Shown: piece by piece, positions 8,287 to 35,952 of the stretch
Layout of the letters: every line of letters starts with the position of its first letter
How positions within the stretch are numbered: position 1 is the stretch's first letter
Notes under the pieces: model-generated
Database searches by the model: none
What the model was told of the DNA's origin: nothing
Seen by the model: only the letters and a program-made list of their open reading frames with translations
Position numbers and translations under genes: made by a program
DNA from: Synechococcus sp. CB0101
GTDB taxonomy: Bacteria; Cyanobacteriota; Cyanobacteriia; PCC-6307; Cyanobiaceae
Assembly (NCBI RefSeq): GCF_000179235.2
Contig: NZ_CP039373.1
Location: forward strand, 1,395,860 to 1,459,859
DNA length: 64,000 bases
Direction of reading: 5' to 3'

Positions 8287-10362
<2,076 letters not shown>

Positions 10363-23879: not shown

Positions 23880-23907
23880 TGGAGCTGTGACTGGCCTAGG
23901 TAAACAC

Positions 23908-24237
23908 TCAGCCCAACGCACTTGCTCGATGAACCCAGTCCGAGAGCTTGGCTGGCGTGATACGACCAGTCGCACTCCCGACATACTGGGAGTTGTTCAC
24001 GAGGGAGACGGTTGGAGTAGCTCTGACGCCAAACTGGTCAGCAAGACCCGGATTCTGACTAGCGTCAACTCGAACAACGGCGATTTGGTCACCGAATTGC
24101 GCAGCCACTGCATCTACCGCTGCGGAAACACTCTTACAAGGCTCACAATCGGGCTGGGTAAACTCAACGAGGGTCACTAGGCCACCAGCCACGGCCTGCA
24201 GCGCCTGGTCATCAAGGGTCGAAAAGGATTTAGTCAT
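23908..24237 (-). CDS. Thioredoxin-fold protein with a double-glycine-like N-terminus
   Basis: The fold is thioredoxin-like: strand VTLVEF, active site CEPC (Cys31 and Cys34, in place of the usual CGPC), and the cis-proline region GVRATPTVSL. At 109 residues it is of normal thioredoxin length. Its first 19 residues, MTKSFSTLDDQALQAVAGG, resemble the L-x-x-V-x-G-G leader of the peptide genes that follow to the right, but they also align with the normal first strand and helix of thioredoxins. Whether this is a processed leader is unresolved. It is upstream-flanked by a 710-bp region without genes. Confidence 0.8.
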   Translation of the reverse strand: MTKSFSTLDDQALQAVAGGLVTLVEFTQPDCEPCKSVSAAVDAVAAQFGDQIAVVRVDASQNPGLADQFGVRATPTVSLVNNSQYVGSATGRITPAKLSDWVHRASALG

Positions 24238-24947
24238 GGGAAGAACTCCTTAGGGGTGAAACTGAGAAGCACCGACGAGCGGAGCCCTCAATGCACCCAG
24301 ACTGACCGAACCATGGAGATCAAACCAGATCAAAACCAAGAACAGTTCCGGGGAAAATCCAGTGAACCGAGCCGTGCCCACAAGAACCCAAGGAAGCCGA
24401 CTCCTTATCCGAGCCGGCATGCAACTGCGAGCAGCAAGAACAGGAAACACATAGGCAAGCACAGGCATACTCTGATCTCACAGACACGGCCACACAGCAC
24501 AAACAAAGAACCAACAGCAATGATGAACGCCAAAGAGTGGCCCTGAACGAGCCAGATCTTGACACCTCAAGCCGGCCACTAATCGAGGCCCCGGCAAGGC
24601 AGACAACGGCAATCAGAGCATGGCATTTAATACGCTGATTGAACTGAACCAGAGAATTAGCTCTGCAAAGACTGGAAAAGTGCTCAACTGGGAGCACTCC
24701 ACAGTCACCTTGCCACGAACGCTCACGAAGAATGGCGGAGGGGCAAAACGAAAGGCCGCCGCTTTGCCTACGCCCCATCAGCGAAGGCAGCGCCATCACT
24801 TACAAAAGACGCCTGCAAAGGGCAAGAGGATGCCCCAAGGAGCGAGGACCGCTCAGTCATTATTTGGCGACTTTCAAGGAACTGTTTAAAAGGGCTCCAG
24901 GGCTTTCACCCCAGAGCCCAAAGGCAGAAATGGCCAGTAACCACAAA
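24238..24947. other. Gene-poor stretch between thioredoxin and the peptide array
   Basis: No convincing gene is visible. Open frames in this region (24256-24546, 24320-24799, 24620-24889) have no recognisable composition or motif and overlap each other in opposite directions. A sequence at 24348-24363 (CCGGGGAAAATCCAGT) resembles the dyad motif found before the peptide genes, at reduced match. A terminator at 24888-24919 closes the transcript entering from the right. Confidence 0.5.
24888..24919 (-). terminator. Rho-independent terminator after the peptide gene at 24948-25271
   Basis: Read on the minus strand, an inverted repeat GGGCTC / GAGCCC with an inner GGG/CCC stem is followed by TTTT. 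It starts 28 bp after the peptide stop codon. Confidence 0.75.
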
Positions 24948-25271
24948 CTAAGCAGTGCGATCCGCAATCATCTGCTGAATGGTCTCTTCGCCATATTTGG
25001 CAATCAAAGCCTGCTCAAAGCTGTCAAGACTTTCCGTCATAAGACGGTTCGAATCTCTGATAGCATCTAATCCGGAGCGCCTTTCACGCTGCTGCTTCAA
25101 CAGCTCACTACCGGCGCTTACGTTATTGTCGAGGGCCATGGTCGTTACAACTCCTTCCCAGACATTGAAGGGCGCCGCCACTGCTTGAAAGATTGCGCCA
25201 GCATTACCTCCTGAAACACAGGAAAGATCTGAATCCGTAACAGCGACATGAGCGGATTGTAGGGTTTTCAT
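24948..25271 (-). CDS. Double-glycine-leader peptide precursor, type B (107 residues)
   Basis: The N-terminus reads MKTLQSAHVAVTDSDLSCVS followed by Gly-Gly (residues 21-22), the class of leader cut after GG by bacteriocin-processing peptidases. The core begins NAGAIFQAVAAPFNVWEGVV, which is hydrophobic, and continues as a charged helix (LLKQQRERRSGLDAIRDSNR). The leader is related to those of the type B genes at 29848 and 31228. The upstream 5'UTR hairpin and promoter are conserved with those genes. Its partner type A gene at 28086 is now separated from it by an inserted element. The start is fixed by the conserved leader. Confidence 0.75.
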   Translation of the reverse strand: MKTLQSAHVAVTDSDLSCVSGGNAGAIFQAVAAPFNVWEGVVTTMALDNNVSAGSELLKQQRERRSGLDAIRDSNRLMTESLDSFEQALIAKYGEETIQQMIADRTA

Positions 25272-25293
25272 TGAAGATTAGCAATTGGACAGT

Positions 25294-25311
25294 GGAGGGC
25301 TTTCTCCCTCC
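25294..25311 (-). promoter_or_regulatory. 5'UTR hairpin of the peptide gene at 24948-25271
   Basis: Stem GGAGGG / CCCTCC with a six-base loop lies about 23 bases upstream of the ATG. The same hairpin occurs at 30170-30187 and 31571-31588 before the other type B genes, so it is conserved while the cores diverge. Confidence 0.6.
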
Positions 25312-25320
25312 GACATATGA

Positions 25321-25349
25321 ATCATGTCTGGCCAGCGATGGATTACCAA
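25321..25349 (-). promoter_or_regulatory. Candidate promoter of the peptide gene at 24948-25271
   Basis: On the minus strand, TTGGTA and CATGAT are separated by 17 bases. Both boxes and the spacing are kept at 30197-30225 and 31598-31626. Confidence 0.45.
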
Positions 25350-25369
25350 GGAGAGAATACGGGTGCTTG

Positions 25370-25385
25370 CCAGGGAATTTCTGGT
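25370..25385. promoter_or_regulatory. Candidate operator, CCAG-N7-CTGG dyad
   Basis: The near-palindrome CCAGGGAATTTCTGGT is centred 31 bp upstream of the -35 box centre. It occurs at the same distance before the other two type B genes (30246-30261, 31647-31662). The position fits an activator binding site. Confidence 0.5.
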
Positions 25386-25387
25386 GA

Positions 25388-25399
25388 GCTTGTGGGCCC
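25388..25399. repeat. Target-site duplication, left copy, of the ISAs1-like element
   Basis: GCTTGTGGGCCC occurs here and again at 27866-27877, on the two sides of the inserted element. Twelve bases is slightly longer than the 8-10 usually given for ISAs1, so the outer bases may match by chance. Confidence 0.8.
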
Positions 25400-25411
25400 A
25401 AGGCCTATTAG

Positions 25412-26627
25412 GGAAATTCTGGAAAACCCAGCCCGTCTGCGCGAAAATGAACCTGTAATCGCAGACCAGGACTGGGTTGATGGGCGGCAAGCAGCTCGGT
25501 TTCACGGACTATGAGCTGACCACGGCCAAGAAGCGCACCAAGCGCGAGAAATTTCTCTCCGAGATGGAGGCTGTGGTGCCTTGGCAGGCACTCATCGATC
25601 TGATCGAGCCGCACTACCCCAAGGCGAGCAAGAAAGGCGGCAGGCCTCCCTATCCGCTGGCAACGATGCTGCGCATTCATCTGCTGCAGCAGTGGTACTC
25701 CCTCAGCGATCCGGCCATGGAAGAGGCCTTGATCGAGGTGCCCACCATGCGCCGCTTTGCCGGCATCGAGCTGATCAGCGATCGGATCCCGGACGAGACC
25801 ACGATCCTCACGTTCCGCCATCTGCTTGAGAAGCATGGGCTGGGTGAGCAGATTTTTGACACCGTCAAAGCGCTCCTGGCCGCTCGGGGCGTAACCATGC
25901 GTCAGGGCACGATCGTCGATGCCACCTTGATCGCAGCGCCCAGCTCCACCAAGAACAAAGATGGGAAGCGGGATCCGGAGATGCACCAGACCAAAAAGGG
26001 CAACCAGTGGTACTTCGGCATGAAGGTCCACGCCGGCGTTGACAAGGACTCAGGCCTGATCCATTCGGTTGTCGTCACCGCCGCCAACGTGCACGACCTC
26101 ACCCCGGCAGCTGAGCTACTGCATGGAGATGAGGAGGTGGTGTACGGCGATGCTGGCTACCAGGGCATCGCCAAGAGACCAGAAATGGCTGGCAAGACAG
26201 CGGAGTTCAGAGTGGCGATGCGGCCCGGCACGCGCAGGGCTCTTCCTGACACCCCGGATGGGAGGGTGCAGGATCTGATCGAGACGGCCAAAGCTCACAT
26301 CCGCTCCAAGGTTGAGCATCCCTTCCGTGTGATCAAGCAGCAGTTCGGCTTTCAAAAGACCCGGCTGCGAGGCTTGGCCAAGAACCGCTGCAAAATCAAC
26401 GTGCTTGCGGCACTGTCGAATCTGTACCAGGCCCGACGACAATTACTCGCGACAGTGTGAACAGGGACTTGGTGTGCCTGCACACCTCTATTTAGCCTCA
26501 AAACCAGCCGAAAGTGGCTGGATATGTGAGCCAAGGTCATCAAAAAATGGCCTCAGAGGCAATTTGCAGCCAAAACCACTCTTTCTGCTCGCTGCCGCCG
26601 CTCAAACACCGCTTGTCCAGAGTTTCC
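25412..26627 (+). mobile_element. IS5-type insertion sequence, nested
   Basis: Terminal inverted repeats are GGAAATTCTGGAAAA at the left and GGAAACTCTGGACAA read inward from the right (13 of 15 matching). The element is bounded by TTAG at 25408-25411 and 26628-26631, which agrees with the YTAR target duplication of the IS5 subgroup. The length is 1,216 bp, and the transposase is intact. It landed 8 bp inside the left terminal repeat of the ISAs1-like element. Confidence 0.85.
25477..26460 (+). CDS. IS5-family transposase, intact
   Basis: A DDE transposase of 327 residues. The N-terminal region has the IS5 pattern WQALIDLIEPHYPK, the catalytic Asp is in GTIVDATLIAAPSSTKN, a second Asp in VYGDAGYQG and the Glu in the C-terminal segment AHIRSKVEHPFRVIKQQFGF (R-x-x-x-E-H). 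No frameshift or stop interrupts it. The ATG at 25480 is an equally good start. It is the only gene in the IS5-type element. Confidence 0.92.
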   Translation: MMGGKQLGFTDYELTTAKKRTKREKFLSEMEAVVPWQALIDLIEPHYPKASKKGGRPPYPLATMLRIHLLQQWYSLSDPAMEEALIEVPTMRRFAGIELISDRIPDETTILTFRHLLEKHGLGEQIFDTVKALLAARGVTMRQGTIVDATLIAAPSSTKNKDGKRDPEMHQTKKGNQWYFGMKVHAGVDKDSGLIHSVVVTAANVHDLTPAAELLHGDEEVVYGDAGYQGIAKRPEMAGKTAEFRVAMRPGTRRALPDTPDGRVQDLIETAKAHIRSKVEHPFRVIKQQFGFQKTRLRGLAKNRCKINVLAALSNLYQARRQLLATV

Positions 26628-26677
26628 TTAGAAGTTTGTCCTCGTAGCCCTGGCTGGGCCGCTGCGCTTACGGTGCC

Positions 26678-27857
26678 GTGCGCGGGAACCGCTCCTGTCC
26701 ATTTGCTTCCGAGCCCGCCACTTCGCCAGTCGCTGTAAGCGATCTGATCAGCTTCCTCAAGGCGCTGCCAGACTGCCGGATGCGCCGGGGTATCCGCTTT
26801 CCCCAGTGGTGGATGCTGCTGGTGGCCATCCTCTCGATTCTGAGCGGCCAGGGCTCGCTGGTGGGGATGGAGCGTGTCGTCAAACGCTGAACGAGCTCCT
26901 GGGCACCGATTTCGGCAAGTCGCCCTCGGATTCCACGTTCCGGCTTCTGCTCGCCCAGTTGGATGTGCCTGGCTTTGAGACCCTGCTCCGCGACTGGATG
27001 GCGGCTCAACCGGGTGTGACAGAAGCGCTGGATACCTTGGTGTGTGATGGCAAGACGCTGCGCGGTTCCATCGCTGAGAACGAAGCCGGCGCAGCGCGTT
27101 TCATTGCCCAGGTAAGCCTCTACTCCCAATCGCTGGGCGTGGCGATTTCGCAGGCCACATACTCCACCGACGCTAGTGGTGAGATCCAGGCGCTGCGCCA
27201 GTTACTGGAGGCCATCGAGCTCGAGGGAGTGCTTGTGCAGGCTGATGCGCTGCATGCGAACCGCCCTTTTTCTCTACCTCGCTGAGCGCGGCGCCGACTT
27301 CCTGATCGCCGTCAAACATGGGCGCCGCAAAGGGTTCCAGTTGATCCGAGATCGGCTCACCTACAGCCGCCGAATCCCCTGGCGCACCAGTAAGAGGGAA
27401 ATTAGGCGAGGTCGTAACATCACCTGGAAGCTGCGGGCGATGCCGGCTCCGGAGTGGGTGATGGAGCAGTGGCCGGGAAGTGCGACGATCAGCGCCTTGC
27501 GTAGCCATGGCATTCGCGAGGGCAAGCCGCAGGACGAGACCCGTTACTACGTCTCGAGTTTGCGCACCGGTGCTAAGTCCCTACTCAGAGCAATCCGCCA
27601 GCGCTGGTCGATCGAAAACAGCTGGCACTGGGTACGGGACGCGCCGCTGCGAGAAGACGCCCACCGCTACCGGGAGAACAACGGAGTCCAAATCCTGGCC
27701 ACGCTGCGGAGCCTGGCCATCAATGCCCTACGGCTCGATGGGACCTGGTCGATCACCGCGGGCATCGCCGCCCTGGCTCATGACATCAAGGGGTTGCGCA
27801 GACTGCTGGGGTGGCAAGAGCCCGCGACGACAGCGAGCTACTCAGGGCGACTTCTAA
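26678..27857 (+). pseudogene. ISAs1-family transposase, broken by frameshifts
   Basis: Three frames together make one ISAs1-type DDE transposase. The first frame carries LISFLKALPDCRMRRGIRFP and ends at 26890. The second resumes with TLNELLGTDFGKSPSDSTFR, contains VCDGKTLRGS (catalytic Asp) and ends at 27285. The third gives ALFLYLAERGADFLIAVKHG and the conserved RQRWSIENSWHWVRDAPLRED with the catalytic Glu. The breaks lie near 26880-26890 and at the T-rich run near 27263-27272. The third frame lacks a stop inside the element, whereas a TAA at 27855 lies in another frame, so a third shift near the 3' end is likely. Confidence 0.85.
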
Positions 27858-27865
27858 TAGGCCTT

Positions 27866-27877
27866 GCTTGTGGGCCC
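27866..27877. repeat. Target-site duplication, right copy, of the ISAs1-like element
   Basis: GCTTGTGGGCCC, identical to 25388-25399. The sequence that follows (from 27883) aligns with the right half of the intergenic module at 30283 and 31685. Confidence 0.8.
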
Positions 27878-27962
27878 TCTTCTTCCGGATGGGAGGCGCG
27901 ACGACAGCTTCGACAAACACACAGCCGGCTGGAGCCAAACGACTTCACCCATAGAAAGCTAG

Positions 27963-28000
27963 AAATAAAAAACACTCCAGGAGGCAAACCCCCGGAGTGT
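27963..28000 (-). terminator. Rho-independent terminator after the peptide gene at 28086-28430
   Basis: On the minus strand ACACTCC pairs with GGAGTGT and is followed by a T-rich run. The copies at 30351-30389 and 31752-31788 have ACGCTCC/GGAGCGT, so both arms changed together, which supports a real RNA stem. Confidence 0.85.
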
Positions 28001-28085
28001 CATTACATACAGCAATCTGCTGCATCTAACAAGAGCCGCTGGGCTACGGAAAGACATCGAACCCAGGCATTGATCAGAAGACCGG

Positions 28086-28430
28086 CTATTTCCTCCAGAC
28101 AAGTGCGGCAGGATCCCAGGCAGCAGCAGTAATAATCGTCCCCGCAGATGATCCACCAATAATCGCAGCCTTGGTCCCCGCCGAGAGGCCTTCTTTATAC
28201 ACCTCAACACGAATAGGCTCAGCCGAGCTGACCGAACGAAAACTCCCTGTTGAGTAAGAACCTACAGAACCTGTGCTTGACGCGAGAGAGCGCGATGAAC
28301 TCGACAATGGCTTAGTCATTGGACCAGATTTGACCGAAGAGGTCAGCGCCCTGCCGAGCGATGAAAAACTCCCGCCGACAGCTTCTGAAAGCACCTTGTC
28401 GACGACTGGCCGACCAAGTTGAGGTTGCAT
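28086..28430 (-). CDS. Double-glycine-leader peptide precursor, type A, 5' end altered by IS256
   Basis: The leader reads MQPQLGRPVVDKVLSEAVGG with Gly-Gly at residues 19-20. A serine-rich linker follows (SSSSRSLASSTGSVG), then PIRVEVYKEGLSAGTKAAII and a hydrophobic tail with AAAWDPAALVW. From CAACTTGG onward it is very close to the gene at 30463-30825, but the sequence diverges upstream of that point, 8 bp before the IS256 end, so the present ATG is probably not the original one. Its tail differs from those of the other two type A genes (GGSSAGTIITAA in place of GLYSAGTVVDFI). Expression after IS256 insertion is uncertain because the native promoter is gone. Confidence 0.7.
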   Translation of the reverse strand: MQPQLGRPVVDKVLSEAVGGSFSSLGRALTSSVKSGPMTKPLSSSSRSLASSTGSVGSYSTGSFRSVSSAEPIRVEVYKEGLSAGTKAAIIGGSSAGTIITAAAWDPAALVWRK

Positions 28431-28437
28431 CCCTTGG

Positions 28438-29857
28438 AGTGGTGTAAATCCAGAGGTCTATGACCTGATCGCAGCGTTGTGATCAGGCAGCTGCAGTTAT
28501 GGCAGCTGTTGGTTGATCTTGGGTCTGATTGCTGGTGTTGTCCAGCTTGGCCATCGAGAATTCGGAGAACACGCGGCGACCATCGAGTTGCCATTCCTCC
28601 TGCTGCTCCAACAGAAGCGCTCCGACCAGGCGAACGATGGAGGCGTCGTTGGGGAAGATGCCGACGACGCGGGTGCGGCGCTTGATCTCTTTGTTCAGCC
28701 GCTCCAGCGGGTTGGTACTCCAGATCTTGCGCCAGTGTTCTGGTGGGAACGCCCGGAACGCCAGCACGTCCTCCCTGGCCTGCTCCATCAGGGCTGCCGC
28801 TGCCGGGAATTTTTCGCTGAGCATCCTGGTGACCTGATCCCACTGCTGCACCACGGCCTGTGCCTCGGTCTGAACGAACACCGAGCGCAGCGCTGCGGCC
28901 ACCATGTCCTGGCTGCCCTTTGGCACCTTGACCAGCAGGTTGCGGGCAAAGTGGACGCGACAGCGTTGCCAGCTGCTGCCCTGGCAGCACCGGACGATCG
29001 CCTTCTTGAGTCCTGCATGGGCGTCGCTGATCACCAGTTGCACGCCCGAGAGCCCGCGCTCGCGCAGGCGGCGGAGGAAGGCGGTCCAGAAGGCCTCGTC
29101 CTCACTGTCACCCACCTCGATCCCCAAGACCTCACGCTGGCCATTGGCCGTGATGCCCACCGCCACGATCACAGCCCTGGAGATCACCTGTCTGCGAGCT
29201 GGATCTCGGCCGTGCAGGTACGTCGCATCGAGGTAGACGTACGGGTAACGGCTGAACTCCAGCGGCCGATTCAGGAAAGCCTGCACCTGGGTGTCGAGCC
29301 CCTGGCAGATGCGGCTTTCCTCCGATTTGGAGATACCGCTCTCACAACCCAGCGCAGCCACCAGCTCGTCGACCTTGCGGGTGGAGACACCAGAGACATA
29401 AGCCTCCATCACCACGGCCCACAAAGCCCGATCCACACGGCGGCGAGGCTCCAGTAGCGAGGGGAAGAAACTTCCAGTGCGGAAGCGTGGGATACGCAGC
29501 TGAACGTCACCGGCTGGAGTGGCCAGCAACCGCTCCCGGCTGCCGTTGCGGTGTCCACGCCGCTGGACTGTGCGTTCGTGGCGATCGGCGCCAAGAGCAG
29601 CAGCGGCCTCGGCCTCAATCAGGGCCTGTAGCCCCTGACGGACCAGCTCAGGGATGAGCTCACCGGCAAAAGCGCCATTGAGCAGCTGCGCCAGTTCACT
29701 GGCGGCAGAATCGGAGATGGGCATGGTCTGGTCTCAGGAAGGTGGTAGTGCTCCGACCAGGGTCACAGACCAGCCCACCCATTCCCCCGCAAGGGCCTTG
29801 AGCTCGAGACCGTCAGCACCGGCGTAGCCGGTGCTGATCCTCAGGATTTACACCACT
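28438..29857 (-). mobile_element. IS256-family insertion sequence
   Basis: Terminal repeats AGTGGTGTAAATCC are found at the left end and, inverted, at the right end; they match further inward (AGAGG / TGAGG). The element is 1,420 bp with one intact transposase gene. No target duplication is visible: the eight bases on the left (TCCCTTGG) and right (TGGCGGGA) differ. It lies between a type A and a type B peptide gene, where the next pair has about 400 bp of normal sequence, so flanking DNA appears to have been lost. Confidence 0.85.
28483..29724 (-). CDS. IS256-family (mutator-type) transposase, intact
   Basis: A DDE transposase of 413 residues. The N-terminus contains LLNGAFAGELIPELVRQGLQ, the first catalytic Asp lies in YPYVYLDATYLHGRD, the second in VQLVISDAHAGLKKAI, and the Glu follows in TNPLERLNKEIKRRTRVVG. 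The length and order are normal for the family, and no internal stop is present. Confidence 0.93.
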   Translation of the reverse strand: MPISDSAASELAQLLNGAFAGELIPELVRQGLQALIEAEAAAALGADRHERTVQRRGHRNGSRERLLATPAGDVQLRIPRFRTGSFFPSLLEPRRRVDRALWAVVMEAYVSGVSTRKVDELVAALGCESGISKSEESRICQGLDTQVQAFLNRPLEFSRYPYVYLDATYLHGRDPARRQVISRAVIVAVGITANGQREVLGIEVGDSEDEAFWTAFLRRLRERGLSGVQLVISDAHAGLKKAIVRCCQGSSWQRCRVHFARNLLVKVPKGSQDMVAAALRSVFVQTEAQAVVQQWDQVTRMLSEKFPAAAALMEQAREDVLAFRAFPPEHWRKIWSTNPLERLNKEIKRRTRVVGIFPNDASIVRLVGALLLEQQEEWQLDGRRVFSEFSMAKLDNTSNQTQDQPTAAITAAA

Positions 29858-30147
29858 TGGCGGGACGCCCCCTTTAATTCAGCATAGATATCCTTAAGCA
29901 CGGCTTCTCGAGTCAGGATCGAACTCTGTTCTTTTTGGAGATCTTCCTGATACCTATCAGCTGACAGGCCTGCATGCTCCGCCTTACTAGCCTCCAAAGA
30001 GGCTTCATAGTGCTTCATTAAGGGGATCAAACCAAAGGGGCCGAAACTGCCATATTTTAGGCCATCCTTCCAAGTGAGGCCGCCGCCGACAGCCGCCTGC
30101 AGCGCAGACTCGTCGGTCAGGTGTTGAGCATTAAGAGTGGTTTTCAT
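29848..30147 (-). CDS. Double-glycine-leader peptide precursor, type B, truncated by IS256
   Basis: The leader MKTTLNAQHLTDESALQAAV ends in Gly-Gly-Gly (residues 21-23). The core starts LTWKDGLKYGSFGPFGLIPL, hydrophobic, and continues as a charged helix (ASKAEHAGLSADRYQEDLQ). The last three codons (Val-Val-stop, GTGGTGTAA) are IS256 terminal-repeat sequence, so the natural C-terminus is missing. The leader differs from that of the gene at 31228-31548 at two residues only, while the cores have little in common. A promoter and hairpin are upstream. Confidence 0.75.
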   Translation of the reverse strand: MKTTLNAQHLTDESALQAAVGGGLTWKDGLKYGSFGPFGLIPLMKHYEASLEASKAEHAGLSADRYQEDLQKEQSSILTREAVLKDIYAELKGASRQVV

Positions 30148-30169
30148 TGGTGATTAGCAATTGAACTAC

Positions 30170-30187
30170 GGAGGGCTTTCTCCCTCC
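30170..30187 (-). promoter_or_regulatory. 5'UTR hairpin of the peptide gene at 29848-30147
   Basis: GGAGGG / CCCTCC stem with a six-base loop, 23 bp upstream of the ATG; second copy of the conserved hairpin. Confidence 0.6.
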
Positions 30188-30196
30188 TACATATCA

Positions 30197-30225
30197 ATCA
30201 TGTCGGGCCAGCATCGGATTTCCAA
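30197..30225 (-). promoter_or_regulatory. Candidate promoter of the peptide gene at 29848-30147
   Basis: TTGGAA and CATGAT on the minus strand with a 17-base spacer. Confidence 0.45.
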
Positions 30226-30245
30226 GGAAGGAACGCGGGTGATTA

Positions 30246-30261
30246 CCAGGGAATTTCTGGT
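30246..30261. promoter_or_regulatory. Candidate operator, CCAG-N7-CTGG dyad, second copy
   Basis: CCAGGGAATTTCTGGT, centred 31 bp upstream of the -35 box centre. Confidence 0.5.
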
Positions 30262-30350
30262 TAAACTGTTGGTACTGTTCTGCCGGATGGGAGACGCGAC
30301 AACAGTGTTGACAACGACACAGCCAAACGACTTCACCCATAGGGAGCCAG

Positions 30351-30389
30351 AAATAAAAAACGCTCCAGGAGGCACCCCCCCCGGAGCGT
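30351..30389 (-). terminator. Rho-independent terminator after the peptide gene at 30463-30825
   Basis: ACGCTCC pairs with GGAGCGT on the minus strand, followed by TTTTTT and ATTT. Confidence 0.9.
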
Positions 30390-30462
30390 CACAAGATGCA
30401 GCAATCTGCTGCATATAACAAGAACGGCAGTGCTACGGATAGGTATCGAACCCAGACAGTGG

Positions 30463-30825
30463 TCAGATGATCGGCTTATCCCTCCAGACAACTGCAGCAG
30501 GGTCCCACGCAATAAAGTCAACAACCGTACCAGCCGAGTATAATCCAATGATCCCAGCCTTGGCTCCCGTTGAAAGGCCTTCTTTATACACCTCAACACG
30601 AATAGGCTCAGCCGAGCTGACCGAACGAAAACTCCCTGTTGAATAAGGACCTACAGAACCTGTGCTTGACGCGAGAGAGCGAGATGAACTCGACAATGGC
30701 TTAATCATTGGACCAGATTTGACCGAAGAGGTCAGCGCCTTGCCGAGCGATGAAAAACTTCCGCCGACAGCTTCTGAAAGCACCTTGTCGACGACTGGCC
30801 GGCCAAGTTGATGAGTAGAAAACAT
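30463..30825 (-). CDS. Double-glycine-leader peptide precursor, type A (120 residues)
   Basis: The leader starts MFSTHQLGRPVVDKVLSEAV and ends in Gly-Gly (residues 21-22). A serine-rich linker follows, then IRVEVYKEGLSTGAKAGIIG with a GAKAG (GxxxG) motif, a hydrophobic segment LYSAGTVVDFIAWDPAAVVW and the end RDKPII. The ATG has a good ribosome site (AGGAG, 6 bases upstream). The N-terminal two thirds match the gene at 28086-28430, but the C-terminal third matches the gene at 31862-32215, so it looks like a recombinant of the two. A 10-bp palindrome lies about 83 bp upstream. Confidence 0.78.
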   Translation of the reverse strand: MFSTHQLGRPVVDKVLSEAVGGSFSSLGKALTSSVKSGPMIKPLSSSSRSLASSTGSVGPYSTGSFRSVSSAEPIRVEVYKEGLSTGAKAGIIGLYSAGTVVDFIAWDPAAVVWRDKPII

Positions 30826-30907
30826 GATTCTCCTGTGATGTGGGATCGGTAGAAATCTCTTCCGATACCTATAGCGTGACAGAGCATCACGCCCCATTCC
30901 AGATGCT

Positions 30908-30939
30908 TCTCTGGAAAATTTGAAGAGAATTTCCAGAGA
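30908..30939. promoter_or_regulatory. Palindrome upstream of the peptide gene at 30463-30825
   Basis: TCTCTGGAAA and TTTCCAGAGA form a perfect 10-bp inverted repeat around 12 bases. It contains the CTGGAAA/TTTCCAG core related to the dyad before the type B genes. Confidence 0.5.
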
Positions 30940-31162
30940 AAGCAAGGCAGCTGAGGAGAACGAAAATCTGCATGCCGCTTGGCCATGAAGTCACAACCAT
31001 ACCAACCAGAACTGGAGCACGATGCCACTGCCTCATAGCTCTCAGACAGCATAGAATTAAGGAGAGAATTCAAGTCGGGTACCTCAAGTACCTTCGAAGC
31101 GCACTCTCTGGCACGGTCGATAAAATTGGCAACAAGCCTCGATCTATCAGCTTCAATGCAGA

Positions 31163-31198
31163 ACCCCTCTGCAGCCACGACCGTGGCTGCAGAGGGGT
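31163..31198 (-). terminator. 17-bp perfect inverted repeat after the peptide gene at 31228-31548
   Basis: Arms 31163-31179 and 31182-31198 (ACCCCTCTGCAGCCACG and its complement) are separated by 2 bases, starting 30 bp after the stop codon. The position suits a terminator, but no T run follows on either strand, so a processing or recombination site is also possible. Confidence 0.5.
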
Positions 31199-31227
31199 AT
31201 CGATACTCATGTGGTACTAGCGCTACG

Positions 31228-31548
31228 CTAGTCCAAAGAAGCAATAAGGCTGTCGATGTAGTCGCGATATGACTGCCCTGCCAGGCCCATTTCTTGGGAT
31301 AGGGCCTGACTTTCGGCCTGAATTGATGGGGTTTTTGCCCGAATAGAGCTCAGATCTTCTTTTGACTTTGTCATCTCAGCTGTAGCGTTGATAGCGTCAA
31401 CTAGTGGATTGGGCGCGAAGAAGCCAGGGAGCATGGGGCCGACAGCCCCCTTCAGCACAGCCCCGAAGAATTCAGGGACGCCGCCGCCGACAACCGCCTG
31501 CAGCGCAGACTCGTCGATCAGGTGTTGAGCATTAAGAGTGGTTTTCAT
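31228..31548 (-). CDS. Double-glycine-leader peptide precursor, type B (106 residues)
   Basis: The leader MKTTLNAQHLIDESALQAVV ends in Gly-Gly-Gly (residues 21-23). The core begins VPEFFGAVLKGAVGPMLPGF, hydrophobic and glycine-rich, then changes to a polar helix (TKSKEDLSSIRAKTPSIQAE) ending SLIASLD. Unlike the copy at 29848-30147 it is full length. The upstream promoter, dyad and hairpin are intact, so this is the best candidate for an expressed type B peptide. Confidence 0.78.
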   Translation of the reverse strand: MKTTLNAQHLIDESALQAVVGGGVPEFFGAVLKGAVGPMLPGFFAPNPLVDAINATAEMTKSKEDLSSIRAKTPSIQAESQALSQEMGLAGQSYRDYIDSLIASLD

Positions 31549-31570
31549 TGGTGATTAGCAATTGGACTAC

Positions 31571-31588
31571 GGAGGGCTTTCTCCCTCC
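31571..31588 (-). promoter_or_regulatory. 5'UTR hairpin of the peptide gene at 31228-31548
   Basis: GGAGGG / CCCTCC stem with a six-base loop, 23 bp upstream of the ATG; third conserved copy. Confidence 0.6.
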
Positions 31589-31597
31589 GACATATCA

Positions 31598-31626
31598 ATC
31601 ATGTCGGGCCAGCATCGGATTTCCAA
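31598..31626 (-). promoter_or_regulatory. Candidate promoter of the peptide gene at 31228-31548
   Basis: TTGGAA (31621-31626) and CATGAT (31598-31603) on the minus strand with a 17-base spacer. Confidence 0.45.
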
Positions 31627-31646
31627 GGAAGGAACGCGGGTGATTA

Positions 31647-31662
31647 CCAGGGAATTTCTGGT
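31647..31662. promoter_or_regulatory. Candidate operator, CCAG-N7-CTGG dyad, third copy
   Basis: CCAGGGAATTTCTGGT, centred 31 bp upstream of the -35 box centre. Confidence 0.5.
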
Positions 31663-31751
31663 TAGACTGTTGGTACTGTTCTGCCGGATGGGAGACGCGA
31701 CAACAGTGTTGACAACGACACAGCCAAACGACTTCACCCATAGGGAGCCAG

Positions 31752-31788
31752 AAATAAAAAACGCTCCAGGAGGCACCCCCCGGAGCGT
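31752..31788 (-). terminator. Rho-independent terminator after the peptide gene at 31862-32215
   Basis: ACGCTCC pairs with GGAGCGT on the minus strand, followed by a T-rich run. Confidence 0.9.
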
Positions 31789-31861
31789 CACAAGATGCAG
31801 CAATCTGCTGCATATAACAAGAACGGCAGTGCTACGGATAGGTATCGAACCCAGACAGTGG

Positions 31862-32215
31862 TCAGATGATCGGCTTATCCCTCCAGACAACTGCAGCAGG
31901 GTCCCACGCAATAAAGTCAACAACCGTACCAGCCGAGTATAATCCAACGATCCCAGCCTTGGCCCCCGTTGAAAGGCCACCTTTCGGAACGACGTTTTGA
32001 ACGACTTCGACTCGTACAGGAGGCGGTGACGACGGTGGCGTCGAGGGGAGTGAACCAAACGACATCTTGCTGCTTGCTGAACTAGAGCTACCCACGCTTT
32101 TTCCAGACTTGGCAAGACTGCCAAAAGCCTTGAAAAACGAACCCACAGATCCACCGACGGCCGCCGAAAGATCTTGTTCATCGACTGAGAAAGAGGCTCG
32201 ATCAAAAGAAGTCAT
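31862..32215 (-). CDS. Double-glycine-leader peptide precursor, type A (117 residues)
   Basis: The leader MTSFDRASFSVDEQDLSAAV ends in Gly-Gly (residues 21-22). The core begins SVGSFFKAFGSLAKSGKSVG, then a Ser/Pro-rich linker (SLPSTPPSSPPPVRVEVVQN), and ends with the same 37 residues (GLSTGAKAGI to RDKPII) as the gene at 30463-30825. The ATG at 32215 is chosen because upstream codons in the frame start at 32260 and show no leader character. It is the first gene of the array in the direction of transcription. Confidence 0.75.
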   Translation of the reverse strand: MTSFDRASFSVDEQDLSAAVGGSVGSFFKAFGSLAKSGKSVGSSSSASSKMSFGSLPSTPPSSPPPVRVEVVQNVVPKGGLSTGAKAGIVGLYSAGTVVDFIAWDPAAVVWRDKPII

Positions 32216-32592
32216 GATTGATTTGCGTATTGAGTTCAATCGGAATTTCTTCCGATACATGCATCATGGACAACCCTCACCCTTCCATCCAGGTGCTTGA
32301 GCGGAGGCTTTCAAGGTAATTTCAAGGGAGCCTTGCTGAATCGGTGAAACACGAGTGCTGCAACCGCATTCTTGAGCCGTATACCCCCGATTTGTTGATC
32401 ACTTTTGGATGCTGGGCGTCTCCACACCCTGCGAAACGCCCTGATCGATTAACGGCGCGATCTGGCAAAGCTAGATGGCCTACAGAAGATCGCCGCCATG
32501 AATAAGCCCGGCGAGGTCATCGCCGGGTCCCATCCCCATGTCGTCGCTGAGCACATTGGAGCGTGGGGGCCTCGAGAGTGCCATAGGTGTTG
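32216..32592. other. Non-coding stretch at the edge of the peptide array
   Basis: No gene is supported. The first 120 bp resemble the upstream region of the gene at 30463-30825 and contain two TTCAAGG repeats (32310-32327). A stem CCCGGCGA / TCGCCGGG at 32507-32527 may terminate the reductase gene that ends at 32593, though no T run follows. Confidence 0.45.
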
Positions 32593-34930: not shown

Positions 34931-34944
34931 ACAACACAGATATT

Positions 34945-35222
34945 TCAGGGAATGTCTCGTGATGCACCAGGCACCCCAATTCCCAATAAATCAGCCCCCT
35001 TGATCAGCTGTTCCACTAGCCGACGTGCCTCCCTGGCTAGCTCTAGATGCTCTCTAGCAAACGCTCCAGGCGCGCCAGCTGATACCGGGTGACCTCTGTA
35101 GGCAGGGCTCGATACATCGCCCTGCACTGGCGAAGCTTTTCTTCTAAACCCAGGCGCACATGGTGATCACAGGGCAGGGGAACGGTTGCTGTTGTGGGCC
35201 GAGTGAGTTGATGACCAGCCAT
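34945..35222 (-). pseudogene. Small gene, probably frameshifted
   Basis: From ATG at 35222 a frame of 59 residues runs to a stop at 35043 (KLRQCRAMYRALPTEVTRYQ, then LARLERLLES). Near 35045-35055 the next frame continues in the same helical style (HLELAREARRLVEQLIKGAD LLGIG, split here after 20) to 34945. Joined, these give a helical protein of about 95 residues. A one-base shift in the gene or in the sequence would explain it. The function is unknown. Confidence 0.4.
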
Positions 35223-35670
35223 TTTTGGACCTCAGTATGCATTTGCCCTGAAACCAGAGGAGTACTCCTCTCGATGTATTCACCATCGCAGGAGCGATTG
35301 CTCCATTACCAGATGAAAAGCCAGGGCGGATTCAGGGAATTTCAGGTGAAACGGCGCAACGATTTGCGCTAGGCCAAAAGCCGTGCCTACGAAAGACCAG
35401 CCAAACAAGCCACTGCACAACCACCCACTCATCTTGGGCCTCGATGCATGCATGGGCTCACCTGATCGCGATCAAGCTCGATGCCCTCTTCTTAGGCGGA
35501 ATGAAGGCTGAGCAATCGACCAGCCCCACCCCTAGGTCGATGGCTCTCACCAACAATTCCCCGAAACCTCCCTCAGGATTCTTCTGGTAATCGAAGGGAG
35601 GCTGAAGCATTCTGAAGAGGTCGGGGACACAACACCCCACAACACAACTCAACTCACCAGAACAAGAACC
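35223..35670. promoter_or_regulatory. Upstream region of the plus-strand peptide gene
   Basis: No gene is supported here. TCAGGGAATTTCAGGT at 35332-35347 resembles the dyad of the array. Arms CCTCCCT (35567-35573) and AGGGAGG (35595-35601) form an inverted repeat about 70 bp before the ATG, similar in composition to the 5'UTR hairpins of the array. Confidence 0.45.
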
Positions 35671-35952
35671 ATGAACACCACCACAATCGAAACCAACACC
35701 TTCAACTTGGCCGATGCAGAGCTGCAGGCCGCAGTCGGCGGCCGAAAGAAAGGAGGCGGAAAGAATCGCGCCCAACGACAAGCCCGCAAATTCTGGAAAC
35801 AGCACAAGGCCTCGCAACCCCAGATCACAATCGGTGATGGAGGGGTAACGATTGATGGTGAATGGACAGGTGCCCCGGCTCCCGCTCCTTTCAATCCGTT
35901 CAAACCTGTTGATGGGGCGGACGCAATCTCCTTCCCCCAAATGCCTGGCTGA
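35671..35952 (+). CDS. Double-glycine-leader peptide precursor (93 residues)
   Basis: The leader MNTTTIETNTFNLADAELQA continues AVGG (Gly23-Gly24), the same class as in the array at 24.9-32.2 kb. The core is unlike any of those: a highly basic helix (RKKGGGKNRAQRQARKFWKQ) and then a beta-like, proline-rich tail (GDGGVTIDGEWTGAPAPAPF). Such a cationic core is typical of antimicrobial or nucleic-acid-binding peptides, but neither is shown here. It lies just before a tRNA-Val gene, a common site for accessory genes. Confidence 0.7.
   Translation: MNTTTIETNTFNLADAELQAAVGGRKKGGGKNRAQRQARKFWKQHKASQPQITIGDGGVTIDGEWTGAPAPAPFNPFKPVDGADAISFPQMPG

What the first reader, a model, noticed from the sequence alone, without database searches (positions are those of the whole stretch)
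29848..31548. Near-identical leaders joined to unrelated type B cores
The 20 residues before the glycines differ at only two positions between the genes at 29848-30147 and 31228-31548, and much of the leader DNA and 5'UTR is the same, but the core sequences share little. Sharp change at the glycine site is the signature of precursor families in which one maturation machine serves many products.
Basis: seen in the sequence. Interest (0 to 1): 0.75.

Follow-up and report, generated by a model that had tools for sequence, protein, structure and literature searches.

The report
Recombined leader blocks on secreted peptides
Two neighbouring cyanobacterial genes for small, probably exported proteins share their control region and export tag almost letter for letter but carry different cargo, because a 500-base block has been copied between them, and a related control element stands before other tagged genes in this genome, apparently including two kinds of folding enzyme.

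Summary
Observation confirmed: leaders differ at 2 of 20 residues (64/66 bases identical), identity collapses just after the glycine codons, and the cores align no better than codon-shuffled DNA. The interpretation needs correcting. The identical stretch is not just the leader but a ~500-bp block from the tail of the upstream gene (A) through terminator, spacer and 5'UTR to B's glycine codons, sharp at both ends. Spacer DNA is as conserved as the leader, both leader changes alter amino acids, and A1 is a chimera (informative sites 117:4 against 2:129). The match therefore records gene conversion or unequal crossing-over in an IS-riddled, strain-specific 8.7-kb islet; an IS256-like end replaces B1's last codons. 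Beyond the finding: all six islet genes that keep their upstream region carry a two-box 46-bp element 95-109 nt before the start (weak in A2). Box 1 occurs 19 times in the genome (reversed-pattern control 0); 17 stand 97-121 nt before a short ORF with a leader-like start. One congener has the element at two GG genes beside the orthologue of this genome's second C39 exporter. One machine for many products is thus plausible, but follows from this wider set, not from the pair. Cargo apparently includes two FKBPs and a thioredoxin.

The parts
31228..31548 (-). B2: GG-leader ORF, 106 aa, leader 22 aa, no Cys
29848..30147 (-). B1: GG-leader ORF, 99 aa; leader nearly that of B2; native sequence ends near 29874, last ~8 codons lie in the IS256-like end
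24948..25271 (-). B0: third B gene, 107 aa; 5'UTR 81-83% like B1/B2, leader only 44-47% at DNA level
31862..32215 (-). A2: Ser-rich GG-leader ORF, 117 aa, with Gly/Ala-rich hydrophobic C-terminal tail
30463..30825 (-). A1: chimeric A gene; N-part like A0 (219/226), tail like A2 (119/123); breakpoint 30580/30574
28086..28430 (-). A0: A gene whose start and upstream region are replaced by the IS256-like end
31474..31984 (-). near-identical block, copy of unit 2 (A tail, terminator, spacer, 5'UTR, B leader)
30073..30585 (-). near-identical block, copy of unit 1
31760..31789 (-). terminator-like hairpin after A2 (also at 30359-30390 and 27971-28001; one G-C pair is A-T in the A0 copy)
31619..31664 (-). 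two-box upstream element of B2, box 1 end 97 nt before the start
30218..30263 (-). two-box upstream element of B1 (97 nt)
25342..25387 (-). two-box upstream element of B0 (97 nt)
32284..32329 (-). weak two-box element of A2 (95 nt; score 4.2, reached by 2 of 97,910 background positions)
30894..30939 (-). two-box element of A1 (95 nt)
24320..24365 (-). two-box element of the GG-thioredoxin ORF (109 nt)
23908..24237 (-). thioredoxin-fold ORF with GG-leader-like N-terminus; Pfam match begins at residue 21, just after GG (18-19)
28424..29873 (.). IS256-like element (Mutator transposase 28483-29724 -); ends approximate; no target duplication seen; its ends lie in B1 and A0
25400..27865 (.). IS insertion(s) in the A0-B0 spacer: transposase ORF 25477-26460 (+) and pieces of another DDE transposase in 26678-26890 and 27176-28132 (+); flanked by a 12-bp direct repeat, so read as nested
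23880..32592 (.). strain-specific islet; about 24 bp between the matched flanks in congener G016, 1.6 kb of other DNA in G015, G008 and G012

Best explanation
The two genes are neighbouring copies in a tandem A-B array of small double-glycine-leader ORFs. Shown: units 1 and 2 share a block of about 500 bp (A tail, terminator, spacer, 5'UTR, B leader) at 97-99% with unlike DNA on both sides, and gene A1 is a chimera; this is best read as gene conversion or unequal crossing-over, presumably stopping at the glycine codons because B1 and B2 already had different cores. Shown by statistics: the upstream part of the block holds a two-box element found at a near-fixed distance before GG-leader genes at several loci of this genome and before two in a congener. 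Inferred: the element is the promoter or operator of a GG-peptide regulon; the leader is removed after GG by a C39-peptidase exporter encoded elsewhere, most likely PCAT2 at C1:2020472; and the Cys-free cores leave the cell without thioether rings. Most likely role of the products, weakly supported: bacteriocin-like or surface/matrix peptides whose cargo is changed behind a constant control-plus-leader module.
For: Block edges and identity. A1 chimera: 252 informative sites, 117:4 U0-like before and 2:129 U2-like after the breakpoint, 0 of 10000 permutations. Spacer 99.0% against leader 97.0%; both leader changes non-synonymous. One per cent spacer divergence is far too little for the cores to have diverged to shuffled level by point mutation since the block was shared. 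Element: 19 genome hits of box 1 at <=2 mismatches, reversed-pattern control 0; 17 of 19 lie 97-121 nt before a short ORF with a leader-like start, 15 of them with GG. With a matrix trained only on 14 sites outside the window, B0, B1, B2, A1, Trx and the 35671 gene beat all 97,910 background positions; A2 is weaker (2e-5 per site, about 0.003 over the 155 positions scanned). Two GG genes of congener G015 carry it next to a PCAT 65% identical to PCAT2 and 25% to PCAT1.
Against: No exporter is in the window. The PCAT2 assignment rests on one congener; of ten PCAT regions fetched from congeners only that one has the element, and I did not type the other nine exporters. All three PCAT2-locus proteins score below the NHLM cut-offs, and PCAT1 also has TIGR03796 as its best hit, so the name does not separate the two. 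GG genes beside PCAT1 lack the element. Element background is ~49 kb of one window on both strands; the pattern was found after looking; array copies are related by duplication. Box 1 alone gave 9 isolated hits above 11 in eight other fetched stretches with no GG ORF behind them; with both boxes none of those passed 8.8. Of the 19 genome hits 2 have no leader ORF and 2 more lack a GG. In two paralogue pairs the leader is better kept than the UTR. B1 and A0 are damaged, so the array may be decaying.
Confidence: 0.75

Rival explanations
1. Leader conservation by purifying selection for one maturation machine, with fast-diverging cores after an ordinary duplication.
For: Sharp change at GG; GG-leader ORFs and C39 exporters present; in two paralogue pairs of other arrays the leader (98%) is better kept than UTR and core.
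Against: For this pair the non-coding spacer and the 3' end of gene A are equally identical; both leader changes are non-synonymous; B0 keeps the UTR better than the leader; 1% spacer divergence cannot accompany complete core divergence by mutation.
Confidence: 0.1
2. The conserved upstream element is a site used by a recombinase that shuffles GG cassettes, rather than a promoter element.
For: Cassette-like arrays with conserved DNA before different cores; an rve integrase-domain ORF in array L110 and transposases in the islet.
Against: The element sits at a near-fixed distance (95-121 nt) before start codons, as expected of a promoter; no recombinase other than transposases among the 20 window ORFs given to Pfam; the L110 integrase ORF has the domain make-up of an IS3-type transposase (my judgement).
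Confidence: 0.1
3. The products are biofilm-matrix proteins like EbfG of S. elongatus rather than competition peptides.
For: EbfG precursors are small GG-motif proteins (6-7 kDa when mature) exported with the help of a C39 transporter (PMC4997328, passages); A cores are Ser/Gly-rich.
Against: In this genome the two GG ORFs directly upstream of PCAT1 lack the element that marks the islet; no sequence comparison with EbfG was made.
Confidence: 0.25
4. The ORFs are decaying remnants with no present function.
For: IS ends in B1 and A0, ISs in the A0-B0 spacer; strong matches to A and B profiles in none of 399 other family genomes.
Against: B2, A2, A1, B0 and Trx are open, with element, start codons and (A genes) terminator-like hairpins kept.
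Confidence: 0.15

Closest known systems
Cyanobacterial double-glycine (bacteriocin-type) precursors and C39 exporters (Wang et al. 2011, PMC3140520; part 1 of 5 and passages seen)
   Same: Short precursors, GG leader, hypervariable core; precursors can lie far from the exporter.
   Different: A and B match no Pfam or NCBIfam family significantly; no exporter in the window; the shared block includes spacer and part of another gene; a common upstream element is described here.
Prochlorosins and other Nif11-leader peptides (PMC10783134, PMC2887384; passages)
   Same: Many cores behind a constant leader in one genome; recombination suspected by those authors.
   Different: No Nif11 domain match, 22-aa leader, no Cys in any core, so no lanthionine rings.
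EbfG1-4/PteB of Synechococcus elongatus (PMC4997328, PMC9981879; passages)
   Same: Small GG proteins, C39 transporter, no homologues elsewhere.
   Different: Sequences not compared; here arranged as mosaic A-B pairs with a shared two-box element.
Microcin V type I secretion with swapped cargo (PMC10231218; abstract and outline)
   Same: A microcin exporter accepts many unrelated small cargos, limited by length; shown there by engineering.
   Different: Here the swapping is natural and inferred from sequence only.

Membership tests
Double-glycine leader peptide / PCAT substrate | Short N-terminal leader ending in GG with hydrophobic positions before it | tested here: met
   B leaders end L-x-x-V/A-V-G-G at residue 22; seven leaders of the window align with invariant L and GG. 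The published consensus M(R/K)ELX3E(I/L)X2(I/V)XG(G/A) (PMC3140520) is met only in part by B1/B2 (Ala, not Glu, before the Leu).
Double-glycine leader peptide / PCAT substrate | C39-peptidase ABC exporter in the genome | tested here: met
   Two in G000, E 1.0e-36 and 2.2e-36.
Double-glycine leader peptide / PCAT substrate | Exporter encoded next to the precursor | tested here: not met
   The two PCATs lie at C1:799119 and C1:2020472; the window is C1:1395860-1459859. Distant precursors are known in related classes (PMC2887384, passage).
Double-glycine leader peptide / PCAT substrate | Cleavage after GG and export | not testable with these tools
   Needs biochemistry.
Prochlorosin / Nif11 leader peptide (N11P) | Nif11-type leader domain | tested here: not met
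   No Pfam match for the six A/B ORFs at E<=1, while a Nif11 ORF of the same genome scores 1.3e-17.
Prochlorosin / lanthipeptide | Cys in the core | tested here: not met
   No Cys in the core of any of the six A/B ORFs; the one Cys of B0 is in its leader.
Prochlorosin / lanthipeptide | LanM-type synthetase | not tested
   Not searched for in this genome.
NHLP precursor | Match to an NCBIfam precursor model | tested here: not met
   None for the eight ORFs tested.
NHLM-type exporter (for PCAT2) | HlyD - peptidase ABC - second ABC, matching TIGR03794/03796/03797 | tested here: inconclusive
   Order present and best NCBIfam hits are these models, but all below curated cut-offs; PCAT1 also hits TIGR03796 best.
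Two-peptide (class IIb) bacteriocin | Paired peptide genes plus immunity gene and joint activity | tested here: inconclusive
   A and B genes alternate, but no immunity gene was recognised on reading the ORF list; activity not testable.

The most novel reading that the evidence does not exclude
This picocyanobacterium runs a genome-wide regulon of GG-leader genes marked by a two-box upstream element. The element, 5'UTR and leader act as a portable module that recombination joins to new cores, and the module has captured ordinary folding enzymes: two FKBP isomerases and a thioredoxin, which would be re-routed from their usual compartments to a peptidase-containing exporter together with the peptides they may help to fold.
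Probability: 0.4. Interest if true: 0.78.

Novelty: new variant of a known kind. Interest (0 to 1): 0.58.

Why it matters
GG precursor families with constant leaders and variable cores are known, and constancy of the leader is usually put down to what the processing enzymes need. Here the DNA shows a different proximate cause for one pair, a conversion tract covering 5'UTR and leader as well as part of another gene, and gives a tractable natural case of how a cell keeps one control-and-export module while changing cargo. The two-box element offers a handle for finding such genes independent of their cores, and a testable prediction of which exporter serves them. If FKBP and thioredoxin are really exported by this route, natural C39-exporter cargo is wider than peptides.

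Tried and rejected
Relatives by DNA: the spacer-plus-leader DNA in 300 family genomes (own included) gave short weak matches in 12 others. The eight of these twelve whose frames I translated looked like stretches of longer frames, not leader ORFs, by eye; one (L032) does read ALQAVVGG. The other four were not examined. Relatives by protein: A2 alone in 201 genomes, the A profile in 400 and the B profile in 400 (own included) gave strong matches only in G000. Weak ones: 3 others for A2 (E 0.005-0.01), 11 for the A profile (E 5e-4 to 0.008, several with internal stops), 5 for the B profile (E 0.006-0.03). Of these I read two B-profile hits: one lies in a Nif11-like ORF with a GG leader, one in an unrelated-looking frame. 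A short scan for GG ORFs in the three A2 loci L014-L016 gave nothing convincing; the A-profile hits were not examined. Both scans of genome contigs and one of viral contigs confirmed nothing; the tool warns that the window's own genome may be left out there.

Structure: AlphaFold models from 3-sequence alignments were unusable (mean pLDDT 50.0 and 41.1), so no fold search was run. RNA: Rfam gave 0 hits in the islet; two hairpins suspected by eye in the 5'UTRs did not hold up: consensus folding of 14 UTRs was weak (-4.6 kcal/mol) without convincing covariation. Sigma-70 consensus: 2 hits against 3.0 expected.

A first table of core identities allowed free end gaps and gave meaninglessly low values; it was replaced. 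The IS256-like element shows no target duplication, so I do not claim a simple insertion.

FKBP: the leader-like start could partly be coincidence, since the GG falls where the canonical FKBP has Gly-Asp-Gly. In the rows listed, matches in other genomes begin mostly at residues 13-19 of the GG-FKBP, but some run on to residues 2-12, and the list was cut.
Full report
What is there. The window lies in a 2,789,616-bp single-contig genome. Its size and 64% GC resemble Synechococcus sp. CB0101 (2,789,657 bp, 64.1%; PMC6715862, part 1 of 2 of the text read); the identity is not confirmed. On the minus strand the islet reads A2, B2, A1, B1, [IS256-like element], A0, [ISs], B0, thioredoxin-like ORF. 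A ORFs are Ser-rich with a hydrophobic Gly/Ala tail; B ORFs have cores of 69 (native part of B1), 84 and 85 residues; no core contains Cys. None of the six A/B ORFs matches Pfam at E<=1, and NCBIfam gives only insignificant hits.

B1 and B2 leaders differ at 2 of 20 residues; the leader DNA is 64/66 identical; identity falls from 18/20 to 2/20 across the glycine codons. Cores align at 55% DNA identity, against a mean of 50% and a maximum of 59% in 100 codon shuffles. A weak protein signal remains (10 of 500 shuffles reach the B1-B2 score, 0 of 500 the B0-B2 score, 120 of 500 the B0-B1 score), so a remote common origin of the cores is not excluded. B1's last codons lie inside the right end of the IS256-like element, so its C-terminus is not native.

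Why the leaders match. The two units are near-identical over about 500 bp, 30073-30585 against 31474-31984 (97.5%). By region, unit 1 against unit 2: A N-part 44.8%, A tail 96.7%, A-B spacer 99.0%, B leader 97.0%; unit 0 against unit 1: A N-part 96.9%, A tail 73.2%, spacer 81.5%, B leader 43.9%. A1 thus switches partner: of 252 sites where units 0 and 2 differ and unit 1 agrees with one of them, 117 of 121 before the best breakpoint (30580/30574) follow unit 0 and 129 of 131 after it follow unit 2; 0 of 10000 permutations reach this. A leader under selection would not drag along the terminator and the 3' end of another gene. The best account is conversion or unequal crossing-over that ends where homology ends, at the glycine codons. 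When the two B cores first parted, if they were ever one, cannot be told from this pair.

The islet is accessory. The flanking epimerase gene has matches at 58-76% identity in 5 of the other 24 genus genomes; the remaining listed matches are at 43% or less. In G016 the matched ends of the two flanking genes are about 24 bp apart; in G015, G008 and G012 there are 1.6 kb, which in G015 hold a different 525-aa ORF (the three stretches are 89-93% alike); in this genome 8.7 kb. G012's contig ends soon after, and G009 shows no synteny. A and B profiles gave strong matches in none of the 399 other family genomes searched.

A shared upstream element. Other GG genes of the genome were found with a leader profile, and two arrays were fetched as L110 and L111. 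There GG genes are preceded by similar non-coding DNA. Of the 16 pairs compared (of 28 possible among eight array genes), 14 have cores at shuffled level, and in all 14 the UTR (71-96%) is more alike than the leader (44-82%); the other two are true paralogue pairs (a2/b1 and the two FKBPs), where the leader (98%) exceeds UTR (75%, 91%) and core (80%, 81%). By eye the B 5'UTR shares a box with these arrays. Box 1, TCACCAGAAAYTCCCTGRA, has 19 matches at <=2 mismatches in the whole genome and 0 for the reversed pattern. Seventeen are 97-121 nt before a short ORF with a leader-like start; 15 keep GG, two do not (L156, L157), and two sites have no such ORF (L154, L160). A 46-bp two-box matrix trained on the 14 sites outside the window scores B2 17.4, B1 17.4, B0 23.0, A1 13.3, A2 4.2, the thioredoxin ORF 18.7 and the 35671 GG gene 37.6; the best of 97,910 background positions is 8.8, two of them reach A2's score, and seven control genes score -6.8 to -18.9. 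These lie 95-109 nt before the start. A0 has lost its upstream region. The pattern was found after looking at these sequences, so the B scores are not independent; A1, A2, Trx, 35671, L100 and the congener are better tests. Box 1 alone is less specific: it gave 9 isolated hits above 11 in eight other fetched stretches with no GG ORF behind them, none of which passed 8.8 with both boxes.

Which exporter. Of ten PCAT regions fetched from congeners, one (G015, L163) has the element, 104 and 107 nt before two GG genes; the other nine exporters were not typed. The G015 PCAT is 65% identical to this genome's PCAT2 and 25% to PCAT1, and its two neighbours match those of PCAT2 at 56% and 63%. PCAT2 has the HlyD/ABC1/ABC2 order of the NHLM system, scoring below curated cut-offs; PCAT1, too, has an NHLM model as its best hit. 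The two GG ORFs upstream of PCAT1 lack the element. So PCAT2 is the best candidate; this is inference from one congener.

Cargo beyond peptides. Both arrays hold an ORF of 113-114 aa that is an FKBP (Pfam 3.3e-34 and 9.9e-32), starting with a GG-leader-like segment behind the element at 121 nt. The genome's canonical FKBP instead has a long N-terminal extension that begins with a hydrophobic, signal-like stretch (by eye). FKBP homologues were found in 201 of 221 family genomes, own included; among the rows listed only the two array copies match the query from residue 1. The islet's thioredoxin ORF has its Pfam match start at residue 21, right after GG. In both cases removing the leader would take away the first strand of the usual fold (my judgement), so export in active form is uncertain.

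Verdict. Its cause in this pair is recombination; the idea of one machine serving many products is plausible for the wider element-marked set but unproven. Searches of the paper library listed no paper that, from its title and abstract start, describes the element, gene conversion in such arrays or GG-FKBP; only eight papers were opened, none beyond the parts named, and the last query was dominated by unrelated hits.

Noticed in passing
L110:4225-4569 and L111:6336-6677 (own genome C1:934224-934565 and C1:1106335-1106673): FKBP-type isomerases with a GG-leader-like N-terminus inside two GG-peptide arrays, behind the same upstream element.
   Followed up: partly
window 23908-24237 (-): Thioredoxin-fold ORF (CEPC motif) with a GG-leader-like N-terminus and the two-box element; no relative at E<=1e-18 in 200 other family genomes.
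   Followed up: partly
window 35671-35952 (+): GG-leader ORF with a strong two-box element at 105 nt and a paralogue at C1:2584561 (L100) that also has the element.
   Followed up: yes
L111:3284-4213: Sigma-70 family factor gene (regions 1.2-4) about 1.2 kb before the GG array; a candidate regulator of the element.
   Followed up: no
L019:8608-8868 and 9520-9735: Two GG ORFs directly upstream of PCAT1, without the two-box element; their Asn/Ile-rich cores recall, by eye, what is described of EbfG matrix proteins.
   Followed up: no
window 35331-35349 (-) and 34944-34962 (-): Box-1 matches with no recognisable GG ORF behind them; possibly remnants.
   Followed up: partly
window 28424-29873 and 25400-27865: An IS256-like element without target duplication, and an IS insertion with a 12-bp direct repeat, have broken up the array.
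   Followed up: partly
L110:6158-6520 and L111:8600-8956: Nif11-type ORFs that contain two successive GG motifs, about 33 residues apart.
   Followed up: no
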